Source: Ketobacter alkanivorans
GTDB lineage: Bacteria; Pseudomonadota; Gammaproteobacteria; Pseudomonadales; Ketobacteraceae
NCBI RefSeq assembly: GCF_002863865.1
Contig: NZ_CP022684.1
Coordinates: forward strand, 1,641,501 to 1,705,500
Length of the DNA: 64,000 bases
Reading direction: 5' to 3'
The translations under genes and the position numbers were made by a program. How positions within the stretch are numbered: position 1 is the stretch's first letter; every line of letters starts with the position of its first letter. Below are positions 16,240-39,301 of this stretch, piece after piece. Below the pieces are notes generated by a model. The model did not search any database, was not told where the DNA came from, and saw nothing but the letters and a program-made list of their open reading frames with translations.

Positions 16240-17421
16240 ATGGTCATCTCCCCAAGGGTAAAAGGGTTTATCTGTACCACAGCTCACCCCGCTGGTTGCG
16301 CCGCAAACGTGCAGAAGCAGATTGATTTCGTAAAGCAGCAGGGTGAAATCAGCAATGCCCCCAAGCGCGTATTGGTGATCGGGGCTTCCACTGGATATGG
16401 CCTGGCCTCACGCATCACGGCAGCCTTTGGCGGAGGTGCCAGCACCATCGGCATCTTTTTTGAAAAACCGGCCCAGGGCAAACGCACTGCATCGGCTGGC
16501 TGGTACAACTCCGCTGCATTCCAGCAAGCCGCCGAAGCCGCCGGTCTGTATTCCAAAAACATCAATGGCGATGCGTTCTCTCACGAAATCAAGGCCAAGG
16601 CCATCGACTTGATCAAAGCTGACCTTGGACAAGTGGATCTGGTTGTTTATAGCCTGGCATCACCCCGCCGCCAACACCCTGACACGGGCATACTGCACTC
16701 ATCAACCTTAAAGCCCATCGGCAAAGCGGTCACCCAAACCGGGCTGGATACCGATCGTGAGGTCATCAAGCAATTCACACTAGAGCCCGCCACGCAGGAA
16801 GACATTGACAATACCGTCACCGTGATGGGTGGCGAAGACTGGGAAATGTGGTTGAGCGCACTGAATAAGGCAGGTGTATTGGCACCGGACTGCAAGACCA
16901 CCTCCTATACCTATGTTGGCGAAGAAGTTACCCGCGACATCTATTGGGATGGCACCATCGGCGCAGCCAAGAAAGATCTGGATCGTGCCGCCGACACCTT
17001 GCGACAAGACGGTTTTGATGCCCGCGTATCGGTACTGAAAGCCGTGGTCACACAGTCCAGCTCAGCCATCCCCGTGATGCCCCTGTATCTGGCACTACTG
17101 TTTCGCGTTATGAAAGAACAGGGCACACACGAAGGCTGCATTGAACAAATCTATCGTTTATTCAGTGAATGCCTGTACAACGACAGCCCCCGACGGGATG
17201 ACGCTGGGCGTAACCGGGTTGATGAAAAGGAAGTCAATTCAGAGGTTCAACAACAAGTAGAAGCATTGTGGCCTCAGGTCACCACGGAAAACCTGAATGA
17301 GATAAGTGACTTCAGAGGATTTCGCACTGAGTTCATGCAACTATTTGGATTTAACGTTGATGGCGTAGACTACGAGGCAGATGTAGACGCTGAGGTTCCC
17401 GTGAACAACCTGGTGGAATAA
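16240..17421 (+). CDS. fabV: Enoyl-ACP (trans-2-enoyl-CoA) reductase FabV
   Basis: NADH-dependent reductase finishing each cycle of fatty-acid elongation, 393 residues, a triclosan-tolerant alternative to FabI. It begins [20 protein letters not shown], typical of FabV. The cofactor site is [15 protein letters not shown] (about 45-58). The catalytic pair Y235 and K244 ([10 protein letters not shown], the Y-x8-K spacing special to FabV) is at the same numbers as in characterised enzymes. An AAGG site precedes the ATG. It stands alone, divergent from the Kor operon. A terminator follows at 17454. Confidence 0.97.
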
Positions 17422-17453: not shown

Positions 17454-17482
17454 GAGAGCCGCTAAACAGCGGCTCTCTTGTT
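17454..17482 (+). terminator. Hairpin after fabV
   Basis: Perfect 10-bp stem GAGAGCCGCT / AGCGGCTCTC with loop AAAC, then TTGTT. It lies between convergent fabV and the PilZ-acyltransferase gene and may serve both; the U tract is short. Confidence 0.65.
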
Positions 17483-18959
17483 AGCGGCTGTTGGCTCGCT
17501 TCCAATTATAATATACACCCTGACACTGTTTGCCGTAGCGCGCTTTGGCGTAAGCGCTAAACTCGCGCCAGCGCAACGTCAAACCAAACAGCCAACAGCT
17601 TCCATAGACACGCATTTTCTCTACCAGGGTGTAGTCAATAATACGGCGCTTATATAAATACAAACTCACGCCACCCCAAACGCCCCACCAAGTAACAGGA
17701 TTCATGCCTTTGCCCCACTTCGTGGTTAGATCATCCATGACCAACACGCTCATTTTCAAATCGCGGTACTTGGGCTGCACAAAACTGAAACCCGTATCCT
17801 GAAAGCCCACCGTTTTATACATGCTCATTAAATATTTATCGGTACTTATGACAATGTAGTTGCGGCCATTCATCATGGCGTACTTATAAATGTGCTCAAA
17901 CATGCCATGAAGAATATCAGTATCTCGGTAACCTTTATCCAGGCACATAGCGGCCACCTCAAAAAGCTGCTCATAAGGTGGCAATTGAGCGAAATCTGCT
18001 TCAGGCATCAGCATTTCAATTTCCATCGGTTCTACTCCACGATCACCGATTATGATCGTGGCTGTGCCGATGGCTTTGCCCTGGTGATATACAACAAGGA
18101 TACGACTATAACGATCAAAGAAATATGACAGCTTCTTCAGGGGTGCATTAACATCAACCTTACGCACTGCTGCATAGTTACGTCGCCGCAGCGCCAGCAC
18201 ATCCTCATACTCTTGCTGGGTTTCGACAAATTTGAATTGCACCAAACCTTTGACGAAGTAAGAACGCAACCCGGAGCGCCGCAAATCTCTGGGAGTTCTT
18301 TTTAGATAATGAAAACAATACTGCGCCAGTTGTTTTTCGACAGCCTTGGTAAGCGCACCAATACTGACAAAACAGCGCTGCACATTGTCCTCATCGTAAG
18401 ATACATCGGAAACGACCCCATCAATGGTTTGATCTATATCAAACACACCCAGCCGCAAAGTAATGCGCATACCACTAAACAGGATACAGCCCGCATCAAT
18501 ACCGGTGATAAAAAATCCATTGGCAGACAAGCTTTCTATATCGAAATAATGTTTCTGCCGATAAGAAAACGGATGTTGAAACTGCCCTCGAATTGTATTC
18601 TGACGGGACAGTTCTATAGGTGTCAGAGCGCCATGAGCACAGCCCACCTCGTGCTCAATCACTGCTGATACTTTGATTTTATCCCCATTAACCTGCCGGT
18701 CTATAATCAGCCCCTGCACGTTATAGTGCATACCCAATAGCGGGCTGACGATCAGCTTAACGACTTCACCGACTCTCAACTGCGCCTTATATTCCTCAGG
18801 CAACAGCATGGCAAAACCCAAGCTCGAAATATCCAACAGCGTTACAGGAACCCGGCGCGACCCAGCTAGCCAAGTCGCAACCACCCCATGATTTCCATTC
18901 AATTGTTGCCGAACAATACGGCGCCCTTCCCTGGATGAAAACTTAATTGGTGTTTCCAT
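17481..18959 (-). CDS. PilZ-PilZ-N-acyltransferase fusion (FeeM-like), putative c-di-GMP-controlled acyltransferase
   Basis: The 492-residue product has an unusual architecture. Domain 1 (about 8-115) has both PilZ ligand motifs: RRIVR (R13, R17) and DISSLG (D43, S45, G48). Domain 2 (about 116-225) is a second PilZ-like barrel with a weaker motif (RQNTIR, SLSANG). Residues about 240-410 resemble the GNAT-like N-acyl amino acid synthase / exosortase-associated acyltransferase fold: an RRRNY start, DRYSRILVVYHQGKAIGTAT, PYEQLFEVAAMCL, and HIYKYAMMNGRNYIVI then YKTVGFQDTG. The last 80 residues are aromatic-rich (TWWGVWGGVSLYLYKRR) and may contact membrane. It is monocistronic. Acyl-donor, acceptor and c-di-GMP binding are all inference; a PEP-CTERM protein occurs in this window. 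Confidence 0.78.
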   Translation of the reverse strand: METPIKFSSREGRRIVRQQLNGNHGVVATWLAGSRRVPVTLLDISSLGFAMLLPEEYKAQLRVGEVVKLIVSPLLGMHYNVQGLIIDRQVNGDKIKVSAVIEHEVGCAHGALTPIELSRQNTIRGQFQHPFSYRQKHYFDIESLSANGFFITGIDAGCILFSGMRITLRLGVFDIDQTIDGVVSDVSYDEDNVQRCFVSIGALTKAVEKQLAQYCFHYLKRTPRDLRRSGLRSYFVKGLVQFKFVETQQEYEDVLALRRRNYAAVRKVDVNAPLKKLSYFFDRYSRILVVYHQGKAIGTATIIIGDRGVEPMEIEMLMPEADFAQLPPYEQLFEVAAMCLDKGYRDTDILHGMFEHIYKYAMMNGRNYIVISTDKYLMSMYKTVGFQDTGFSFVQPKYRDLKMSVLVMDDLTTKWGKGMNPVTWWGVWGGVSLYLYKRRIIDYTLVEKMRVYGSCWLFGLTLRWREFSAYAKARYGKQCQGVYYNWKRANSR

Positions 18960-19192: not shown

Positions 19193-21583
19193 TTATCCTG
19201 CGCCTTCCAAATTGAATTCAGCTGCATTCGGCGCGCTGCCCGTTGTAGATGCACCCTGATTATCTCTGTGATCGACAAACAAAAGCATAGGAACAAAGAA
19301 TAGAAAATTCACGGCCAACGCCACCGCCACGGTGATTGCAGTCAACATTCCCATCGATGCATTGGGATAATAATGGGAGAAAGACATCATGCCAAAATTG
19401 GCGGATATCACTAAAGTGGTAGCCACCAGCGCAATCCCGACTGTCTTAAATGCGTAACGTGTTGCCTCTATACTGGAAAGCTGGCCTTCCTCTTTTGCTC
19501 GAGTGTACTTACTCAGGAAGTGCACGGTGTTGTCGATAACGATCCCTAAAGTCATACAGGCTACAATGCTAACGGATATACCGATCTGCCCATCGATCAA
19601 TGCCCATATACCAAAGGAAATAATCGCCGGAAACAAATTAGGCAGCATACTGAGCAAACCGTATTTTACTGAGCGCAATGCCACCACTAACAACAAGGAT
19701 ACCACCACCAACGCCAACGCCGTGCCTACCAACATCCCCTGGCCATTCTGATAGGACAGCTCCCCCAACAGCAGATCGAAGCCCACGCCACGCACCTGCA
19801 TGTAAGAAGGTAGATTATCTGCAATCCATTGATCCGCACGCCGCTCAAACGCCAGAATTTCATTAGAGCTAACGCCTCCCAGCAAGACATTCACCCGCAC
19901 CGATGATTGATCCATATCTATCTGATTTTCAAGACCTAAACCAAAAGGTAGCGACATCTGGAACATCAAGGTGTACTGCGATATCAAATCCCTCTGCGCT
20001 GGTATTTGATAGAACGATGGATCACCTCCATTCATATCGCGATTTAAACGCTTGATGGTGTCTGAAAAACTTGAAACGTACTCAACTTCCGGCTGCTGAC
20101 GGGCCCAATGCGCAAAGCGATCGAGCCCTTGCATGTACGCAGGCTCCATAATGCCGGAGGATTCTCCCGATGGAAAAGCAAACTGCAAACGATGGTTTCC
20201 CGTTAACTCATTTACCATAAACTCAGTAGCACGGCGCACTTCGTACGTTTCATCAAAGTACTCCATCCATACATCGTTGAACTCATTTTTTGCGCTAAGC
20301 AAAGCCAGAATGAGAAAAACTGTACTGGATACTATAAACACAGGCTTGCGATGATCTACCACAAAATCAGCAAAGCCATCCATAATACGATGGTCGTGAT
20401 CGCCACCTCTGAACGTTTGTTGTGGTAATACGACAAGCATAGCGGGTAAAAACACAACACTTAGAAACCACGCTGCCATCACGCCGATTGATACCATGTT
20501 CGCCATGTCTGCAAACGGTGGCGACTCTGAACTATTCAAAAACAGAAACCCGATAGCAGTGGTGAGACTGGTTAAAAAGACGGGTTGCGTATTAATACGC
20601 AGGCTCTCATAAACGGCTTGTTGTTTGTTCGCGCCACTGCGGATTTGGTGCTGATATGAAATCAACAAGTGAATACTATCGGCCACCGCCAGGGTTAGTA
20701 TAATGGCAGGTGCACCCCCCATTACCGGCGTGATCTCGACACCAAACCAAACGATGGTTCCCATTGCAATCACGATAGAAAGCATTATCACCAGCATGGT
20801 CTGAATAACCGAAACGATACTGCGCAACATGATAAACAGACAAAACAAAATCGCTACGCCACTGTAAATGGACGTTGAGCTTAGTTCGTTTTCGGTAGTG
20901 GAGCGGGAGGCACTTTTGAAAGCAACGATACCTGACAGCATGATGTCCACATTCGGGTGTTCTTTCACAATCTGATCCCGAAGATTTTCAACATACTCCA
21001 TGATCATCGGTGCATCCTGACCTCGTCGGTCATCCGTAATCACCGTAACGGCAACCGAAGCCGCATGACCACTCTCAGACACAACATTTTTTACCAAATT
21101 CGGCTCTGCCAGCGCGATGCGTTTGATGTGCTGGAGCTCTTCATCGCTAAGACTGTCTACATCACCCACCAGATCCAGAACATTCAGCTCATCACCATCC
21201 ACCAGGGTATGCTGGAAATTGGTCAGCGAGTCCACCCGTTGGGTTTTTGGAATTGCCCATGCGGCGTCCGTCAGTTGTTGCAGAAGTTTCAGATTATCCC
21301 GTGTGAATACGTCGCCGTTATGAGGGCGAACAATAATAATGACGTTATCATCCTTGCTAAAGCGATCCTCGAGTTCGACCAGGCTCTGCATGCCTTTATT
21401 ATCATCAGCAAACAGCGCTCTGGAATCGTTGTTAAACTCCATAAAACGCATGCCGTAACCGGACATTGCCACCCAGGCCAATGTGATAAAAATGCACACC
21501 CACGGGTGATTTATGATGAATAAATGCACTTGTGCGATTGGGCCGGGCTTAACGTCCCGACCCATAAACGGATCGAACTTCAT
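19193..21583 (-). CDS. RND-superfamily exporter, MMPL/HAE3 type
   Basis: The 796-residue inner-membrane protein has the HAE3 layout: TM1 (about 25-45), a large periplasmic loop, TM2-6 containing GGAPAIILTLAVADSIHLLISY, a second loop, then TM7-12 with IVACMTLGIVIDNTVHFLSKY. The Asp-containing TM4 and TM10 motifs are intact. Relatives export lipids, hopanoids or other hydrophobic molecules, often without a dedicated adaptor. I chose ATG 21583 (AAGAG site) over the frame's opening at 21631. It diverges from a TetR gene with a perfect palindrome between them and sits two genes from a P450, implying handling of a hydrophobic substrate. Confidence 0.9.
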   Translation of the reverse strand: MKFDPFMGRDVKPGPIAQVHLFIINHPWVCIFITLAWVAMSGYGMRFMEFNNDSRALFADDNKGMQSLVELEDRFSKDDNVIIIVRPHNGDVFTRDNLKLLQQLTDAAWAIPKTQRVDSLTNFQHTLVDGDELNVLDLVGDVDSLSDEELQHIKRIALAEPNLVKNVVSESGHAASVAVTVITDDRRGQDAPMIMEYVENLRDQIVKEHPNVDIMLSGIVAFKSASRSTTENELSSTSIYSGVAILFCLFIMLRSIVSVIQTMLVIMLSIVIAMGTIVWFGVEITPVMGGAPAIILTLAVADSIHLLISYQHQIRSGANKQQAVYESLRINTQPVFLTSLTTAIGFLFLNSSESPPFADMANMVSIGVMAAWFLSVVFLPAMLVVLPQQTFRGGDHDHRIMDGFADFVVDHRKPVFIVSSTVFLILALLSAKNEFNDVWMEYFDETYEVRRATEFMVNELTGNHRLQFAFPSGESSGIMEPAYMQGLDRFAHWARQQPEVEYVSSFSDTIKRLNRDMNGGDPSFYQIPAQRDLISQYTLMFQMSLPFGLGLENQIDMDQSSVRVNVLLGGVSSNEILAFERRADQWIADNLPSYMQVRGVGFDLLLGELSYQNGQGMLVGTALALVVVSLLLVVALRSVKYGLLSMLPNLFPAIISFGIWALIDGQIGISVSIVACMTLGIVIDNTVHFLSKYTRAKEEGQLSSIEATRYAFKTVGIALVATTLVISANFGMMSFSHYYPNASMGMLTAITVAVALAVNFLFFVPMLLFVDHRDNQGASTTGSAPNAAEFNLEGAG

Positions 21584-21662
21584 ATTGCTATCTCTTTGAA
21601 TTATTTTGATATTTGGCTTTTTTATAGGCAAAACAACCAGACTTGCCGGTCACTCGCAATTG

Positions 21663-33174: not shown

Positions 33175-33681
33175 ATGAACCCGAGACCAGCCCGGATACT
33201 GTTTCTTTGCACCCATAACCGCTGCCGCAGCATCCTGGCAGAAGCACTGACCCGTCATCAAGGCGCCAATTACCTGATCGCGGCCAGCGCTGGCAGCAGC
33301 CCAGAGGGTCAGGTTCATCCAGACACCCTGACCAACCTGCGGCAACGGGGTGTGAACATTGATGGCCTACACAGCAAATCCTGGCATGAGATGGCCGAGT
33401 TCGCTCCTGACTACGCCGTAGCGGTTTGCCAACAAGCGGCTGGAGAAGCTTGTCCAACCTGGATGAACAACGTTCCCATGGTGCATTGGGGCCTGCCCGA
33501 TCCATCCAAAATCACTCAATCTGCCACCGAACGGCAACAGGCCTTTACGGATGTTATGGATACCATCGAGAAGAAAATAGCGATCTGGGTGGGATTGTTG
33601 CAAGCAGACAGCAGCGGATTGCGCTTTCGCGAAGCAATGGACAGTCAGCTGGCGCGACGCAGCACCCAATCGCGAAACTGA
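33175..33681 (+). CDS. Arsenate reductase ArsC, low-molecular-weight phosphatase fold
   Basis: The 168-residue product begins ARILFLCTHNRCRSILAEAL: the P-loop C12-x5-R18-S19 of LMW-PTP/ArsC. C85 and C93 (VCQQAAGEACP) match the two relay cysteines of thioredoxin-coupled arsenate reductases, and VHWGLPDPSK is the catalytic Asp loop. AAGG stands six bases before the ATG. No arsB, arsR or acr3 lies next to it, so it is an orphan. Its last 37 bases overlap the end of the convergent GGDEF-EAL gene. Confidence 0.9.
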   Translation: MNPRPARILFLCTHNRCRSILAEALTRHQGANYLIAASAGSSPEGQVHPDTLTNLRQRGVNIDGLHSKSWHEMAEFAPDYAVAVCQQAAGEACPTWMNNVPMVHWGLPDPSKITQSATERQQAFTDVMDTIEKKIAIWVGLLQADSSGLRFREAMDSQLARRSTQSRN

Positions 33682-36245
33682 GATACCGGCATGGGCTTGG
33701 CCAGATGGAAGCCTTGTACCCGATCACAACCCAAGCGGGTTACACTGGTCAGGGTGTCCTGGTCTTCCACGCCTTCTGCGACAGTCTGTATCTGCAACGC
33801 CCGCGCCAGCTTCACGGTGTTTTCCACGATTCGATAATCGCTGTCGTTACGCCCCATCTGGCTTATAAAACTGCGGTCTATTTTAAGCTCATGTATCGGT
33901 AACCGGCTCAGATAAGCCAACGACGAATAGCCAGTTCCGTAATCATCCAGTGCGATACTGCAACCCGTCGAGGCCAGCTGGTTCAGGTTTTCTATCACCG
34001 TTTCAAAATTATCACTGGTGGTGGTTTCAGTAACCTCGAACACCACCTCTGACAGGTTAATCATATATTTATCGGCCATAGCGGTGACAAATGAAATCAG
34101 TTTCGCTTCCATCAGGTTCTGAATTGAAAGGTTAATACTCAACGTAAGGATATGCCCGTTCTCATTAAAACTGCGCAATACGGTAAACGATTCCTCGATA
34201 ACAAACCGGGTCAGCTCAGGCATCAACCCGGCCTCTTCGGCCACCTCGATAAACTCAACAGGGGACACCACACCAAACTTCTCGCTATTCCAACGCAACA
34301 GCACTTCCGCTCCGCACAAACGATTGGATCGACAGTCAAACTGCGGTTGCAGATACAACTCCAGATCTCGGGCAGAAATCGCATTGATCAGCTCACCTAC
34401 AATGGCCAAACGACGCCGACCGTATGCATCAATATCGGAACTGTAGATAGTGACATCCTCCGGCGTGCGGGAACAATAGTCCCTGGCGGCACTGGCATGC
34501 TGCACCAGCAGATCCGCTCTGTCGCCGTGTCTGGGATAGGTGGCGATACCGCAAAATGCTTTCAGTCGGGTCGACATACCCCCTACATCAAAGGCTGTTT
34601 CGCGCAAGTGCATCAGGTGATCGACAAAGTCATGTACCGATCGATAGCCCTCTCCCATTTTCACTAAAAAAGCCAAGCTACCAAATTCAGTGACTGAAAC
34701 AAAAAAGCGCTGCGATGTTTCAACGGCTATGGACTGGATGTCCCCGCATAATTCGCTGTTAACGCGAATCGCCACTTTGGAAAACAAATCCTCCGCAAGA
34801 CGACGCCCCATCGATGAAGATATTTCCTTGAATTGAGGAAATGAAAACAGCACTAAAGCAAAGGAATCGCACCCCGATCGGTGATCGATCAACTCACCCA
34901 ATCGGTTTAACAGAAAAGCATCATTCGGAAACTTGGTAATGGGATCATGCAGGGCCTGTTCCAGCGCCTGCTCCTGCACCTGCACGGTGGCATACTGGGC
35001 CGCTTTCATCTTCTCCATGGCGATCAGCTTGTGACGGCGCTCTTCTTTAATTCTATGGGCCAGGGCAAACGAAAACAAAAGCGCCTCCAACATGGAGCCC
35101 CCCTGAAAAGCATGATTGGTTAACCGCGAAGGCGCAACCCAGCCAAAAATATTGGCCAGATACAGGCTTGTCCCCAACACAAAAGCCGCTGTGGCAAACA
35201 CAAAATAACGGGCAATCTCTACGCCGGAAAACAATGATCCGACGCCTGCAACCAACACCAGCACCATGGAGATCACACCCACACAGCCTGCCAGGAATGC
35301 CCCCGACTCTGGTGCATACATCACATAACCTGCAACCAGCAAATTGCCCACACACATGGCTTTCATTGCCAAACGCAACCATGGCTTGAGGCAGTCGTTG
35401 CTCAAAAAACTGAGGGAGAAACACAGCAGCCAGAACAGGGCCAAACAGGCCGAAACCGGCAGCACGTAGCCGGTAAGCTCGGGGTTAGCCCACAAATAAC
35501 GCGCCCCTAGCCCGGATATAGCAAGCATCAGCATCACCAATGACACCAACGTCATCACATAATAACCATAGGTCTTGTCGCCCATGGAGATAAACAAAAA
35601 ACTGTTATACAGCAAGAGCGCTACTATCACGCCAAAATACAGCCCCCACAGCAACGCTTCCATGTTCTGCCGGGCAACCAGGTATTCTACAGTCCAGAGT
35701 TCCACCGGCATTTGCAGCGAGGTTGTGGATTCAATGCGTAATAGAAAATCCACCTTTCCGGACAATTCATCAGGAATAGGGAAATTAATATTATTGGAGC
35801 GGAACGTTTTGGGATCCTGGCGTATCTCACGCAGGTTACTGCGCCACAACAGCTTCCGAGATTGCTCGGAAAACGCAAACACTTCGACATCCTGCAACAA
35901 TGGATAAGGAATAACCAAATGCCAGCGATTCGACTGATACGTTGTTAAATCCAGGCTCAGTTTCAACCAGACGGCGTAATCCACAAAACCGAAGTTGAGT
36001 ACTTCACCGCCGGTATTTCGCACCCACTCCGACTGCGCCAACGCATCACTCGGCAGCAATTCCTTACCATCATCAATAACATAGCTAAGAAATGCATTTA
36101 GATTGTAGTAGTCGTAATTGGGCTCATCTGCCTGTGATGTCGCTGCATACAACGAAAAACTGGCTAGAAAAAAACCAGCAAGCAGCAAACTCCCGAATCG
36201 GCAAGGCCTTTTCCAAGTCCTCGTCGAAAAGTTGAATCCGTTCAA
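33645..36245 (-). CDS. 7TMR-DISM sensor with degenerate GGDEF and EAL domains
   Basis: The 866-residue inner-membrane protein starts at TTG 36245 with GAGAG upstream and a signal peptide ending YAA. Order: periplasmic 7TMR-DISMED2 sensor (about 40-180, WHLVIPYPLLQDVEVF), seven-TM DISM bundle (about 195-395), GGDEF-like domain (about 425-590) with signature residues lost (ETSQRF where GGDEF should be), and EAL domain (about 610-855). The EAL domain keeps GAEVLLRW (EVL form), SINLSIQNL, EVTETT, ALDDYGTGYSS, LKIDRSF and AEGVED, so the metal and catalytic residues look intact. I infer a c-di-GMP phosphodiesterase controlled by an extracellular, perhaps carbohydrate, signal, with a regulatory GGDEF remnant. 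Confidence 0.9.
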   Translation of the reverse strand: MNGFNFSTRTWKRPCRFGSLLLAGFFLASFSLYAATSQADEPNYDYYNLNAFLSYVIDDGKELLPSDALAQSEWVRNTGGEVLNFGFVDYAVWLKLSLDLTTYQSNRWHLVIPYPLLQDVEVFAFSEQSRKLLWRSNLREIRQDPKTFRSNNINFPIPDELSGKVDFLLRIESTTSLQMPVELWTVEYLVARQNMEALLWGLYFGVIVALLLYNSFLFISMGDKTYGYYVMTLVSLVMLMLAISGLGARYLWANPELTGYVLPVSACLALFWLLCFSLSFLSNDCLKPWLRLAMKAMCVGNLLVAGYVMYAPESGAFLAGCVGVISMVLVLVAGVGSLFSGVEIARYFVFATAAFVLGTSLYLANIFGWVAPSRLTNHAFQGGSMLEALLFSFALAHRIKEERRHKLIAMEKMKAAQYATVQVQEQALEQALHDPITKFPNDAFLLNRLGELIDHRSGCDSFALVLFSFPQFKEISSSMGRRLAEDLFSKVAIRVNSELCGDIQSIAVETSQRFFVSVTEFGSLAFLVKMGEGYRSVHDFVDHLMHLRETAFDVGGMSTRLKAFCGIATYPRHGDRADLLVQHASAARDYCSRTPEDVTIYSSDIDAYGRRRLAIVGELINAISARDLELYLQPQFDCRSNRLCGAEVLLRWNSEKFGVVSPVEFIEVAEEAGLMPELTRFVIEESFTVLRSFNENGHILTLSINLSIQNLMEAKLISFVTAMADKYMINLSEVVFEVTETTTSDNFETVIENLNQLASTGCSIALDDYGTGYSSLAYLSRLPIHELKIDRSFISQMGRNDSDYRIVENTVKLARALQIQTVAEGVEDQDTLTSVTRLGCDRVQGFHLAKPMPVSQFRDWVLRRAS

Positions 36246-36326: not shown

Positions 36327-37655
36327 ATGAGCACGCTACACGGAGAGTATCGTCGCCACGAGCGCACGACTATCAAAACCCCTGTATCCGTTAACCTTGA
36401 TGATAACGGCCTCAGCAGCAGCACCAGAGATGTCTCAGAAAGCGGCTTATCCATAGCCAAACCTGCAGAGCTGCAACTAAAACCAGGGCAAACGGTGAAT
36501 GTAACCTTCGACCGTTTAGCCAATTTCTCTGTACCTGCAACCATTATCCGAGTGTCAGACAACCAGATCGGCCTAGCGCTGGATCACATTCGCTTTTCTG
36601 AACAGGACATCAGCGGAATCATCCAAACCGCCCCTTGGTATCAACGCACCAAAGTGGCCATTAAGCGGGGCTTCTGGAAAAACACAAGACGTATGGCGGT
36701 GCTGCTTACCAACACCATTTTGCGCAAAGCCTTATTGCGACTGATTAAACCATCTTATATCTTCGCCGTTTACGGTAACGAAAAAGATGTAGGAACCTAT
36801 TACACACCGTTCATGAGCAAACTGATTCCTCCGTTGATGATCGGCAGTGTCATCCGCAATCGCAACCGCACAGGGATTATGGTGGCATCCAAGTTCTACG
36901 AGCACGAACTGGCTGACGATTCCGCCAAGGTGAAAACCTATCTGCAGCAATTGCAGGAGGAGTTCCCGCACATCAATACCATCGCACTTGTTGGCAGGTT
37001 GCCCAACTTTGTGATGAAGGCAGGTCAGGAGATCGAACCGCCATATGTGGATGGCTCCATGGGCACCCGTTACATGATTTGGGATATCGGCAGGCAAATG
37101 CAAATGCGCCCCCAATACAAACATGAGAACGTAATAACCGTGCTGGGTGGCGCTGGGCGCATTGGCAATCTGGTGTGTGAAGACTTAACCCGAGTCTACC
37201 GCACAGTTATCGCCTTTGACCCCCGCTACACCAAGCAGGAAGAAGTGTACACACCCATTGGAAAAATCATTCGCAGCGGTGACCCCGCCATCTTGGATAA
37301 CTGCAAATTGTTCATAGGCCTGACCCACCATGGCGATGCCATCAGGGATCTGAAAGCACACCTGCCTGCGGGTTCTTTGGTGGCAGACGACACCCACCCC
37401 TGTATCAGCATGGAAGCTCGCCAAGAGCTTCAGGTTATGGGGGTTGACGTGGAAAAGATCGTGCTATTTCACGAGGAGTTTTCCATGTGGCCAAGAATGC
37501 CGGGCTGGAACAACCGAGCCATACCAGGCTGCCTGGTGGAAGCATTGGTACTGCTGGAACAAGAGGATGCCGACGTGAAGGATTTCGACAGTTTCTGTAA
37601 AACGGCTCAGCAGATCGGCTTCCAGGGTCAGTTGATCCCACCTCTGGATGAATAA
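36327..37655 (+). CDS. PilZ domain fused to Rossmann-fold dehydrogenase-like domain
   Basis: The product is 442 residues long. The N-terminal PilZ domain (about 5-102) has RRHER (R9, R13) and DVSESG (D35, S37, G40), a complete c-di-GMP motif pair. A basic amphipathic linker (105-142, KRGFWKNTRRMAVLL) may lie on the membrane. Residues 143-265 form a domain I cannot name; 268-410 is a Rossmann fold with GGAGRIG (274-280) and an acidic FDPR at the end of strand 2, favouring NAD. Its organisation loosely recalls two-domain acyl-ACP reductases or alanine dehydrogenases. The GNAT-nitrilase gene follows after 71 bp on the same strand, likely the same transcript. The enzyme activity is unknown. Confidence 0.78.
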   Translation: MSTLHGEYRRHERTTIKTPVSVNLDDNGLSSSTRDVSESGLSIAKPAELQLKPGQTVNVTFDRLANFSVPATIIRVSDNQIGLALDHIRFSEQDISGIIQTAPWYQRTKVAIKRGFWKNTRRMAVLLTNTILRKALLRLIKPSYIFAVYGNEKDVGTYYTPFMSKLIPPLMIGSVIRNRNRTGIMVASKFYEHELADDSAKVKTYLQQLQEEFPHINTIALVGRLPNFVMKAGQEIEPPYVDGSMGTRYMIWDIGRQMQMRPQYKHENVITVLGGAGRIGNLVCEDLTRVYRTVIAFDPRYTKQEEVYTPIGKIIRSGDPAILDNCKLFIGLTHHGDAIRDLKAHLPAGSLVADDTHPCISMEARQELQVMGVDVEKIVLFHEEFSMWPRMPGWNNRAIPGCLVEALVLLEQEDADVKDFDSFCKTAQQIGFQGQLIPPLDE

Positions 37656-37726: not shown

Positions 37727-39301
37727 ATGGCCTCCAAAAACACGCTTTCCGACCCAAAAAACCAAATTGTAATCCGTAATGCCACCACCGCAGATGCCAG
37801 CGCTATCTGCGATCTGAGCAGCCGGGTGTATGCCAGCACTGGCATGTACGGTTACTCGGAAGGTGCCGTTACCGGCCAGATCAACCATTTCCCCCAAGGG
37901 CAATTTGTCATCGTAATTGGTGACAAAATCGTAGGCTACTGTGCAACCTTTCGCATCGGAGAAGATCTGGCGCTGAAGAAACATAACTGGACAGAAATCA
38001 CCGGTAATGGCTATGCCTCTCGTCATGATCCGGATGGAGACTGGCTGTATGGCATGGAGGTGGCTATTGATCCCGAGTATCGGGGGTATCGACTGGGCCA
38101 ACGGCTATACAATGAACGCAAAAAGCTGTGCCAAAGCCTGGGGTTGAAAGGCATCGTATTTGGTGGTCGCTTGCCCTCACTATCCAATCGGCTGAAGCGT
38201 TTTGGCAGCGTGGAAGAGTACGTTGAGCAGGTCATTCAGAAGAAGCAACGGGATCAAGTGCTCTCATTCCAGCTGCACAATGGCTTTGAAGTGATCGGCA
38301 TCATTCCTCACTATCTTGATGCGGATGTGCAGTCCATGGGCTACGCCGTTCATCTGATGTGGCGCAACCCCATGGTGGCCGTAGAAGAACCCACCACCAA
38401 CAAGAAAAAGTATGGCGGTCGAGTTCCCGATTCCGTTCGCATTGGCTCGGTTCAATACATGCAGCGGCGAGTACACACGTTCGATGAGTTTCTGTCGATC
38501 GTTGAGTATTTTGTAGATGTGGTGGCGGACTATAAGGGCGACTTTGTGGTGTTCCCTGAACTGTTTGCCCTGCAACTGTTATCCATAGAGGATCAGGCGC
38601 TGTCACCCATGGAATCCATGGAAGCACTGACCAAGTACACCCCGGCATTCAAAGAAGCATTACGCGACATGTCGATCCGCTACAATATCAACATCATCGG
38701 CGGCTCCCACCCCACCATCATGCCCAACGGTCGAGTGGAAAACATCGCTTATATCTTCCTGCGGGATGGCACCATTCACGAACAACCCAAGATTCACCCC
38801 ACACCGAATGAGGTTTACTGGTGGAATATTGAGGGCGGCAACACACTGAAAGCCATCGAAACGGATTGCGGCCCCATCGGCGTGCTGATCTGCTACGACT
38901 CTGAGTTTCCTGAACTGGCTCGCCATCTGACCGATCAGGGTATCTCCATCCTGTTCGTGCCATTTTGTACCGACGAACGCCAAAGCTATCTGCGGGTGCG
39001 TTACTGCTGCCAGGCTCGCGCGGTAGAAAACCAGATCTACGTGGTGATGTCCGGTAACGTGGGCAACTTGCCCAAAGTGAACAACATGGACATTCAGTAT
39101 GCCCAAAGCTGTATTCTAACCCCCTGCGATTTTCCCTTCGCCCGGGATGGTATCGCTGCCGACACCACCCCCAACGTAGAGATGATTGCATTCGCGGACT
39201 TGCGCCCTGAAACATTGATGATGGCGCGTAACAACGGCACCGTTAAAAATCTACAGGATCGTCGCCACGACCTTTACAGTTTGAACTGGCGGGGCAAGTA
39301 A
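37727..39301 (+). CDS. Bifunctional GNAT acetyltransferase / carbon-nitrogen hydrolase
   Basis: The product has 524 residues. The N-terminal GNAT domain (about 12-215) shows IRNATTADASAICDLSSRVY and the acetyl-CoA loop EVAIDPEYRGYRLGQRLYNE. The C-terminal nitrilase domain (about 230-510) has the Glu-Lys-Cys triad: FVVFPELFAL (Glu), PKIHPTPNE (Lys) and GVLICYDSEFPEL (Cys). This fusion is recurrent in bacteria (YhcX-type) but its substrate is not established; an amide or ureido compound is expected. AAGG lies before the ATG. The upstream PilZ-Rossmann gene in the same direction may make or use the same metabolite. Confidence 0.9.
   Translation: MASKNTLSDPKNQIVIRNATTADASAICDLSSRVYASTGMYGYSEGAVTGQINHFPQGQFVIVIGDKIVGYCATFRIGEDLALKKHNWTEITGNGYASRHDPDGDWLYGMEVAIDPEYRGYRLGQRLYNERKKLCQSLGLKGIVFGGRLPSLSNRLKRFGSVEEYVEQVIQKKQRDQVLSFQLHNGFEVIGIIPHYLDADVQSMGYAVHLMWRNPMVAVEEPTTNKKKYGGRVPDSVRIGSVQYMQRRVHTFDEFLSIVEYFVDVVADYKGDFVVFPELFALQLLSIEDQALSPMESMEALTKYTPAFKEALRDMSIRYNINIIGGSHPTIMPNGRVENIAYIFLRDGTIHEQPKIHPTPNEVYWWNIEGGNTLKAIETDCGPIGVLICYDSEFPELARHLTDQGISILFVPFCTDERQSYLRVRYCCQARAVENQIYVVMSGNVGNLPKVNNMDIQYAQSCILTPCDFPFARDGIAADTTPNVEMIAFADLRPETLMMARNNGTVKNLQDRRHDLYSLNWRGK

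What the first reader, a model, noticed from the sequence alone, without database searches (positions are those of the whole stretch)
17481..18959. PilZ-PilZ-acyltransferase: possible c-di-GMP-gated lipid synthesis
Two tandem PilZ-like domains, the first with intact ligand motifs, precede a FeeM/exosortase-type N-acyltransferase domain and an aromatic-rich tail. N-acyl amino acid synthases of this kind make surface or signal lipids and often accompany PEP-CTERM systems. A direct c-di-GMP switch on such an enzyme would be new to my knowledge.
Basis: partly seen in the sequence, partly recalled or inferred. Interest (0 to 1): 0.68.

Follow-up and report, generated by a model that had tools for sequence, protein, structure and literature searches.

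The report
Tandem-PilZ N-acyl amino acid synthase
A marine bacterium of the genus Ketobacter carries an enzyme that probably joins fatty acids to an amine to make a surface or signal lipid, fused to a two-part sensor for the bacterial messenger c-di-GMP; it is a rearranged version of a fusion first described in 2016, so a new variant rather than a new kind.

Summary
ORF 17481-18959 (-), 492 aa, is tandem PilZ (residues 1-222), a FeeM-type N-acyltransferase (about 223-420) and a basic, aromatic-rich tail. FeeM passes its Pfam cut-off (E 8.4e-9); PilZ is just below cut-off here but passes in relatives; a structure search of the (low-confidence) model returns YcgR-like c-di-GMP receptors first. 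R13, R17 and G48 are invariant in 8 Ketobacter/f7 proteins and the catalytic Glu (E334) in all 18 relatives found. These occur in only three families of the order. In the third family the ligand motif is intact in PilZ domain 2 and lost from domain 1, the reverse of Ketobacter, which argues that one c-di-GMP site is kept under selection.

The novelty claim is only partly right: Nas343/Nas354, an NAS fused to one PilZ in the opposite order, were described in 2016, make N-acyltyrosine in E. coli, and were proposed to be c-di-GMP-regulated; NasP is an NAS activated by cAMP; HfsK is a GNAT-fold c-di-GMP effector. There is no PEP-CTERM link at this locus. Most likely it is a membrane-associated, acyl-ACP-dependent N-acyl amino acid synthase controlled by c-di-GMP. 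Binding, product and direction of control are untested.

The parts
17481..18959 (-). complete CDS, 492 aa, PilZ-PilZ-NAS with C-terminal tail (stop codon 17481-17483)
18639..18959 (-). PilZ domain 1, residues 1-107, ligand motif intact
   Evidence: Pfam 26-95, just under cut-off; hhalign 59%, E 9e-5; Foldseek
18909..18923 (-). R13-x3-R17, c-di-GMP-binding arginine motif
   Evidence: invariant in 8 f1+f7 proteins
18816..18833 (-). D43-I-S-S-L-G48, [D/N]xSxxG motif
   Evidence: G48 invariant in 18; D43 is D/N and S45 is S/T in f1+f7
18294..18638 (-). PilZ-like domain 2, residues 108-222, motif degenerate here but equivalent to the intact PilZ domain of f39 relatives
   Evidence: (f17_D2 vs f39_D2 90%)
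17700..18293 (-). [quoted passage not shown]
   Evidence: Pfam match 254-391 = 17787-18200
17958..17960 (-). E334, equivalent of the FeeM-family catalytic Glu
   Evidence: invariant in 18 proteins; aligned with the NAS-family Glu, which aligns with FeeM 2G0B
17484..17699 (-). aromatic-rich basic tail, residues 421-492, with W424 and W428 invariant in all 18
19193..21631 (-). MMPL-family transporter gene upstream, same strand, 233 bp away; possible partner, weak evidence
   Evidence: adjacent in 4 of 6 Ketobacter loci; caveat

Best explanation
It is a cytoplasmic, probably membrane-associated N-acyl amino acid synthase under direct c-di-GMP control. The C-terminal domain takes a fatty acyl chain from acyl-ACP and transfers it to the amino group of an amino acid or related amine, using E334 as the catalytic glutamate. 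The N-terminal tandem PilZ module binds c-di-GMP at R13/R17 and D43-G48 of domain 1; binding rearranges the two PilZ domains against each other and against the synthase, switching activity or membrane placement, with the tail helping to hold the enzyme at the bilayer where the lipid is released. Shown here: domains, conserved catalytic and ligand residues, conservation, restricted distribution. Inferred: acyl-ACP donor, amine acceptor, c-di-GMP binding, coupling, direction of control, membrane binding.
For: FeeM Pfam match over cut-off; NAS half matches canonical NAS at 96%, E 1.2e-9, with E334 aligned to the NAS glutamate that aligns with FeeM 2G0B. E334 invariant in 18/18. Mutation of the equivalent Glu103 of the NAS-PilZ enzyme Nas354 abolished its surfactant and hemolytic phenotypes (PMC4897644). 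Foldseek of the full model: the first 14 PDB hits are tandem PilZ receptors, several in c-di-GMP complexes: PP4397 E 2.1e-6, YcgR, MrkH, PlzA, MotI, VCA0042. R13, R17, G48 invariant in f1+f7. In f39 the intact RRxxxRW and [D/N]xSxxG lie in domain 2 while domain 1 lacks RxxxR: each lineage keeps one site. The genome has 71 GGDEF matches and 13 other PilZ matches, so the messenger should be available. An independent NAS-nucleotide-sensor fusion (FeeM + cNMP-binding, L014) exists in the same order, and NasP is reported as cAMP-activated (cited in PMC4897644).
Against: No binding or activity data. PilZ domain 1 is 1.3 bits under the Pfam cut-off. The structure model has mean pLDDT 49 and the NAS half could not be tested by fold. 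The Arg after the catalytic Glu (ExxR) of many NAS and of most f39 relatives is Ala in f1/f7, though FeeM itself has Gln there. No NCBIfam match.
Confidence: 0.6

Rival explanations
1. The transferase is a GNAT-like enzyme with another donor or acceptor (polysaccharide, protein, polyamine, phospholipid headgroup), still controlled by c-di-GMP, in the manner of HfsK of Caulobacter.
For: Several generic GNAT models also match; identity to FeeM-type enzymes is only about 20%; the ExxR arginine is lost in f1/f7; HfsK is a GNAT-fold c-di-GMP effector thought to act on the holdfast polysaccharide (PMC5362036).
Against: The best and only over-threshold model is FeeM; catalytic Glu invariant in 18; the closest characterised fusion makes N-acyltyrosine (PMC4897644).
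Confidence: 0.22
2. The PilZ module does not change catalysis but places the enzyme: c-di-GMP-dependent recruitment to a membrane site or to a partner.
For: Basic aromatic tail with two invariant tryptophans suggests membrane contact; HfsK changes location on c-di-GMP binding.
Against: No direct evidence either way; computed hydrophobic moments of the tail are not high.
Confidence: 0.25
3. The PilZ domains are structural only, or bind another ligand, and the enzyme is not c-di-GMP-responsive.
For: PilZ1 below Pfam cut-off; domain 2 degenerate in Ketobacter; in f39 the gene next door encodes a class III nucleotide cyclase-like protein, which hints at another nucleotide in the pathway.
Against: The ligand residues are among the few invariant positions of PilZ domain 1 in f1+f7 (15 of 107 columns) and an intact site persists in each lineage.
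Confidence: 0.15

Closest known systems
Nas343 and Nas354 (metagenomic NAS-PilZ enzymes, PMC4897644)
   Same: NAS domain fused to a PilZ domain in one polypeptide; catalytic Glu; c-di-GMP control proposed by the authors
   Different: there the NAS is N-terminal and one PilZ is C-terminal; here a tandem PilZ pair is N-terminal.
[quoted passage not shown]
   Same: Pfam FeeM domain, catalytic Glu position
   Different: about 20% identity, no sensor domain in FeeM, extra tail here
NasP and the FeeM-cNMP protein L014
   Same: NAS joined to a nucleotide second-messenger sensor
   Different: cAMP-type domain, C-terminal in L014
YcgR / PP4397 / MrkH / PlzA tandem c-di-GMP receptors
   Same: two tandem PilZ-type beta-barrels; Foldseek top hits
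   Different: their ligand arginines lie between the domains and the site is in the second barrel (general knowledge of YcgR); in Ketobacter they precede and belong to the first. The f39 relatives have the YcgR-like layout
HfsK (Caulobacter, PMC5362036)
   Same: GNAT-fold acyltransferase directly bound by c-di-GMP
   Different: no PilZ; FemX-like tandem GNAT; different substrate class

Membership tests
[quoted passage not shown]
   35.8 bits vs 27; hhalign 96% to canonical NAS
[quoted passage not shown]
   E334 invariant in 18, aligned with the NAS Glu
[quoted passage not shown]
   model pLDDT 46, no meaningful hits
[quoted passage not shown]
   needs expression and lipid analysis
PilZ c-di-GMP receptor | RxxxR and [D/N]xSxxG at proper spacing and conserved | tested here: met
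   R13/R17, D43-G48, conserved in f1+f7 (S45 is T in f7)
PilZ c-di-GMP receptor | Pfam PilZ gathering score | tested here: inconclusive
   21.2 bits vs 22.5 for this protein; f39 relatives pass (35.5, 29.3 and 22.8 bits)
PilZ c-di-GMP receptor | c-di-GMP binding | not testable with these tools
   biochemical
YcgR-like tandem receptor | two tandem PilZ-type barrels | tested here: met
   Foldseek first 14 hits, E 2.1e-6 to 7.6e-4, from a low-confidence model; profile E 0.01 to chains deposited as MrkH/YcgR
YcgR-like tandem receptor | RxxxR in the interdomain linker with site in the second barrel | tested here: not met
   in f1/f7 RxxxR is at residues 13-17 and the site in barrel 1; met in f39. 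It is YcgR-like in layout, not filed as a YcgR
PEP-CTERM/exosortase-linked acyltransferase | located with exosortase genes | tested here: not met
   single exosortase match 1.77 Mb away; no NCBIfam match
Nas343/Nas354 type NAS-PilZ | NAS N-terminal, single PilZ C-terminal | tested here: not met
   order and number differ

The most novel reading that the evidence does not exclude
A lipid-making synthase gated by a tandem PilZ sensor whose working c-di-GMP pocket has moved from one barrel to the other between lineages while the output domain stayed the same, and which in one lineage (f39) sits in a gene cluster with a membrane-bound class III cyclase-like protein, an MMPL exporter and a methyltransferase: a second-messenger-controlled lipid synthesis and export module.
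Probability: 0.3. Interest if true: 0.62.

Novelty: new variant of a known kind. Interest (0 to 1): 0.45.

Why it matters
N-acyl amino acids are surfactants, antibiotics and possible signals of environmental bacteria, with an unclear role for the producer. A synthase wired directly to c-di-GMP would tie their production to the switch between swimming and attached life, and gives a one-gene, E. coli-testable case of messenger control of a lipid enzyme. The relocated ligand site offers a natural experiment on how tandem PilZ pairs pass a signal.

Tried and rejected
Sequence comparison with PDB using the single protein gave nothing. MMPL partner: a transporter of this type next to the gene in 4 of 6 Ketobacter loci and in 6 of 10 f39 loci looked like conserved linkage, but the genome has about 14 such loci, several matching the f39 transporter equally well, and the window's is only third best, so orthology is not supported and the link stays suggestive. 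PEP-CTERM link: rejected for this locus. Wider search: no further full-length relatives in 369 genomes of the class or 398 of the phylum. Amphipathic-helix anchoring by the tail: hydrophobic moments unremarkable. The paper on PEP-CTERM-linked NAS was not held.

Full report
What is there. The window lies in a 4.91 Mb single-contig genome. The four nearest named relatives are MAGs labelled Ketobacter sp., Pseudomonadales or Gammaproteobacteria, and I call the genus Ketobacter on that basis. ORF 17481-18959 (-) encodes 492 aa. Pfam finds FeeM at 254-391 (E 8.4e-9, above cut-off) and PilZ at 26-95 (E 3.6e-4, 1.3 bits below cut-off). NCBIfam has nothing. The protein is present without stops in all six sampled genomes of its genus.

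Relatives. Profile searches found the full architecture only in three families of the order: f1 (six Ketobacter genomes; not the other sampled genera of that family), f7 (2 of 2 genomes) and f39 (10 of 81 genomes, one of them, L071, with a decayed NAS half), and none in 369 genomes of the class or 398 of the phylum apart from the window's own (two partial hits in the phylum sample covered only the transferase). The 18 proteins were aligned. Seventeen match PilZ and seventeen match FeeM at E<=0.5.

Domains by independent routes. Profile-profile comparison: the NAS part of f1+f7 matches canonical NAS proteins at 96% (E 1.2e-9) and the f39 NAS at 99.9%; domain 1 of f1+f7 matches PilZ proteins of the same genome at 59% (E 9e-5), domain 2 of f39 at 96% (E 8.5e-9), and domain 2 of f1+f7 matches domain 2 of f39 at 90%. 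Cross-pairings between PilZ-type and NAS-type profiles gave at most 1.6%. Foldseek on the full-length model, in which the PilZ region is the better part (10-residue means 41-79) though the overall mean pLDDT is 49, lists PP4397, YcgR, MrkH, PlzA, MotI and VCA0042 before anything else. The acyltransferase half was too poorly predicted for a fold test.

Residues. E334 is invariant in all 18 and aligns with the NAS-family glutamate; a canonical family member, L013, aligns the same Glu with FeeM 2G0B. Thies et al. 2016 showed that the corresponding Glu103Ala in Nas354 abolished its phenotypes (PMC4897644). In f1 and f7, R13, R17 and G48 are invariant, D43 is D or N and S45 is S or T; domain 2 lacks both motifs. 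In f39 all ten proteins carry [R/K]RxxxRW before domain 2 and [D/N][I/V]SxxG in it, while domain 1 has no RxxxR and has K, R or T at the position of D43. So each lineage keeps one complete site, and the site differs. This is the most unusual thing I found. At least one change of site is needed between the two groups; its direction is unknown.

Chance. RxxxR followed at the right distance by [D/N]xSxxG arises in 0.25% of shuffles of the first 107 residues and in 1.8% of shuffles of the whole protein, and 3 of 52 long ORFs in the window have it, so the motif alone would not persuade; the alignments and the fold match do.

Surroundings. Downstream and convergent is the enoyl-ACP reductase gene fabV (16240-17421, +), conserved next to the gene in all six Ketobacter loci. 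Upstream, same strand, 233 bp away, is an MMPL-family transporter (19193-21631), adjacent in four of six loci. In f39 the gene is usually in a tight cluster: a membrane protein with a class III nucleotide cyclase-like domain (profile match to CyaB, E 3.9e-11) abutting or overlapping the start of the NAS gene, then commonly an MMPL transporter and a methyltransferase. Because the Ketobacter genome holds about 14 loci matching that transporter and the window's is only third best, I do not claim orthologous linkage. In f7 the upstream genes are a LysR regulator and a metallo-beta-lactamase-fold protein, and in one of the two genomes a GGDEF protein lies just downstream. There are 71 GGDEF and 13 further PilZ matches in the genome, and one exosortase 1.77 Mb away.

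How it likely works. By homology to FeeM-type enzymes (established knowledge), the domain transfers an acyl group from acyl-ACP to an amine. By homology to tandem PilZ receptors, c-di-GMP binding at the arginine motif reorients the two barrels. The simplest coupling is that this changes access to, or the placement of, the synthase domain. Whether it activates or inhibits cannot be told; NasP is activated by cAMP (as cited in PMC4897644) while HfsK is inactivated by c-di-GMP (PMC5362036).

Compared with what is known. The idea of a PilZ-fused NAS is not new: Nas343 and Nas354 have it with NAS first and one PilZ last, make N-acyltyrosines in E. coli, and their authors proposed c-di-GMP regulation without demonstrating it. 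Full-text searches found no other paper combining the two, but subscription journals are largely missing from that library. What is new here is a tandem PilZ pair in the N-terminal position, a natural host lineage with conservation, and the moved ligand site. I therefore call it a new variant of a known kind.

Noticed in passing
L064:6439-7959, L062:9621-11162 and seven others (alignment A5): In f39 the gene directly upstream of the PilZ-NAS encodes a membrane protein with a class III nucleotide cyclase-like domain that keeps both metal Asp, Asn and Arg, but has Arg at the usual adenine-selecting Lys (read from the alignment to CyaB). Pfam barely sees it. Possibly a second nucleotide input.
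   Followed up: partly
L018:637-2073, L020:706-2085: In another genus of the same family the FeeM domain is fused to an N-terminal hydrophobic, probably multi-pass membrane region instead of PilZ.
   Followed up: no
L014:1456-2736: FeeM followed by a cNMP-binding domain, the NasP-like arrangement, in the same order.
   Followed up: no
window 36327-37655 (+): Another PilZ protein: PilZ at residues 9-90 followed by about 350 aa with no Pfam match at E 1e-5, next to a 7TMR-GGDEF-EAL gene (33645-36245, -).
   Followed up: no
G000 whole genome: 71 GGDEF matches and about 14 MMPL-type transporter loci in 4.9 Mb, a heavy c-di-GMP and lipid-exporter load.
   Followed up: no
window 37727-39301 (+): GNAT domain fused to a carbon-nitrogen hydrolase domain.
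   Followed up: no
L071:8027-9403: A relative whose PilZ part is intact but whose synthase half has lost most conserved residues except the Glu: possible decay or change of function.
   Followed up: no
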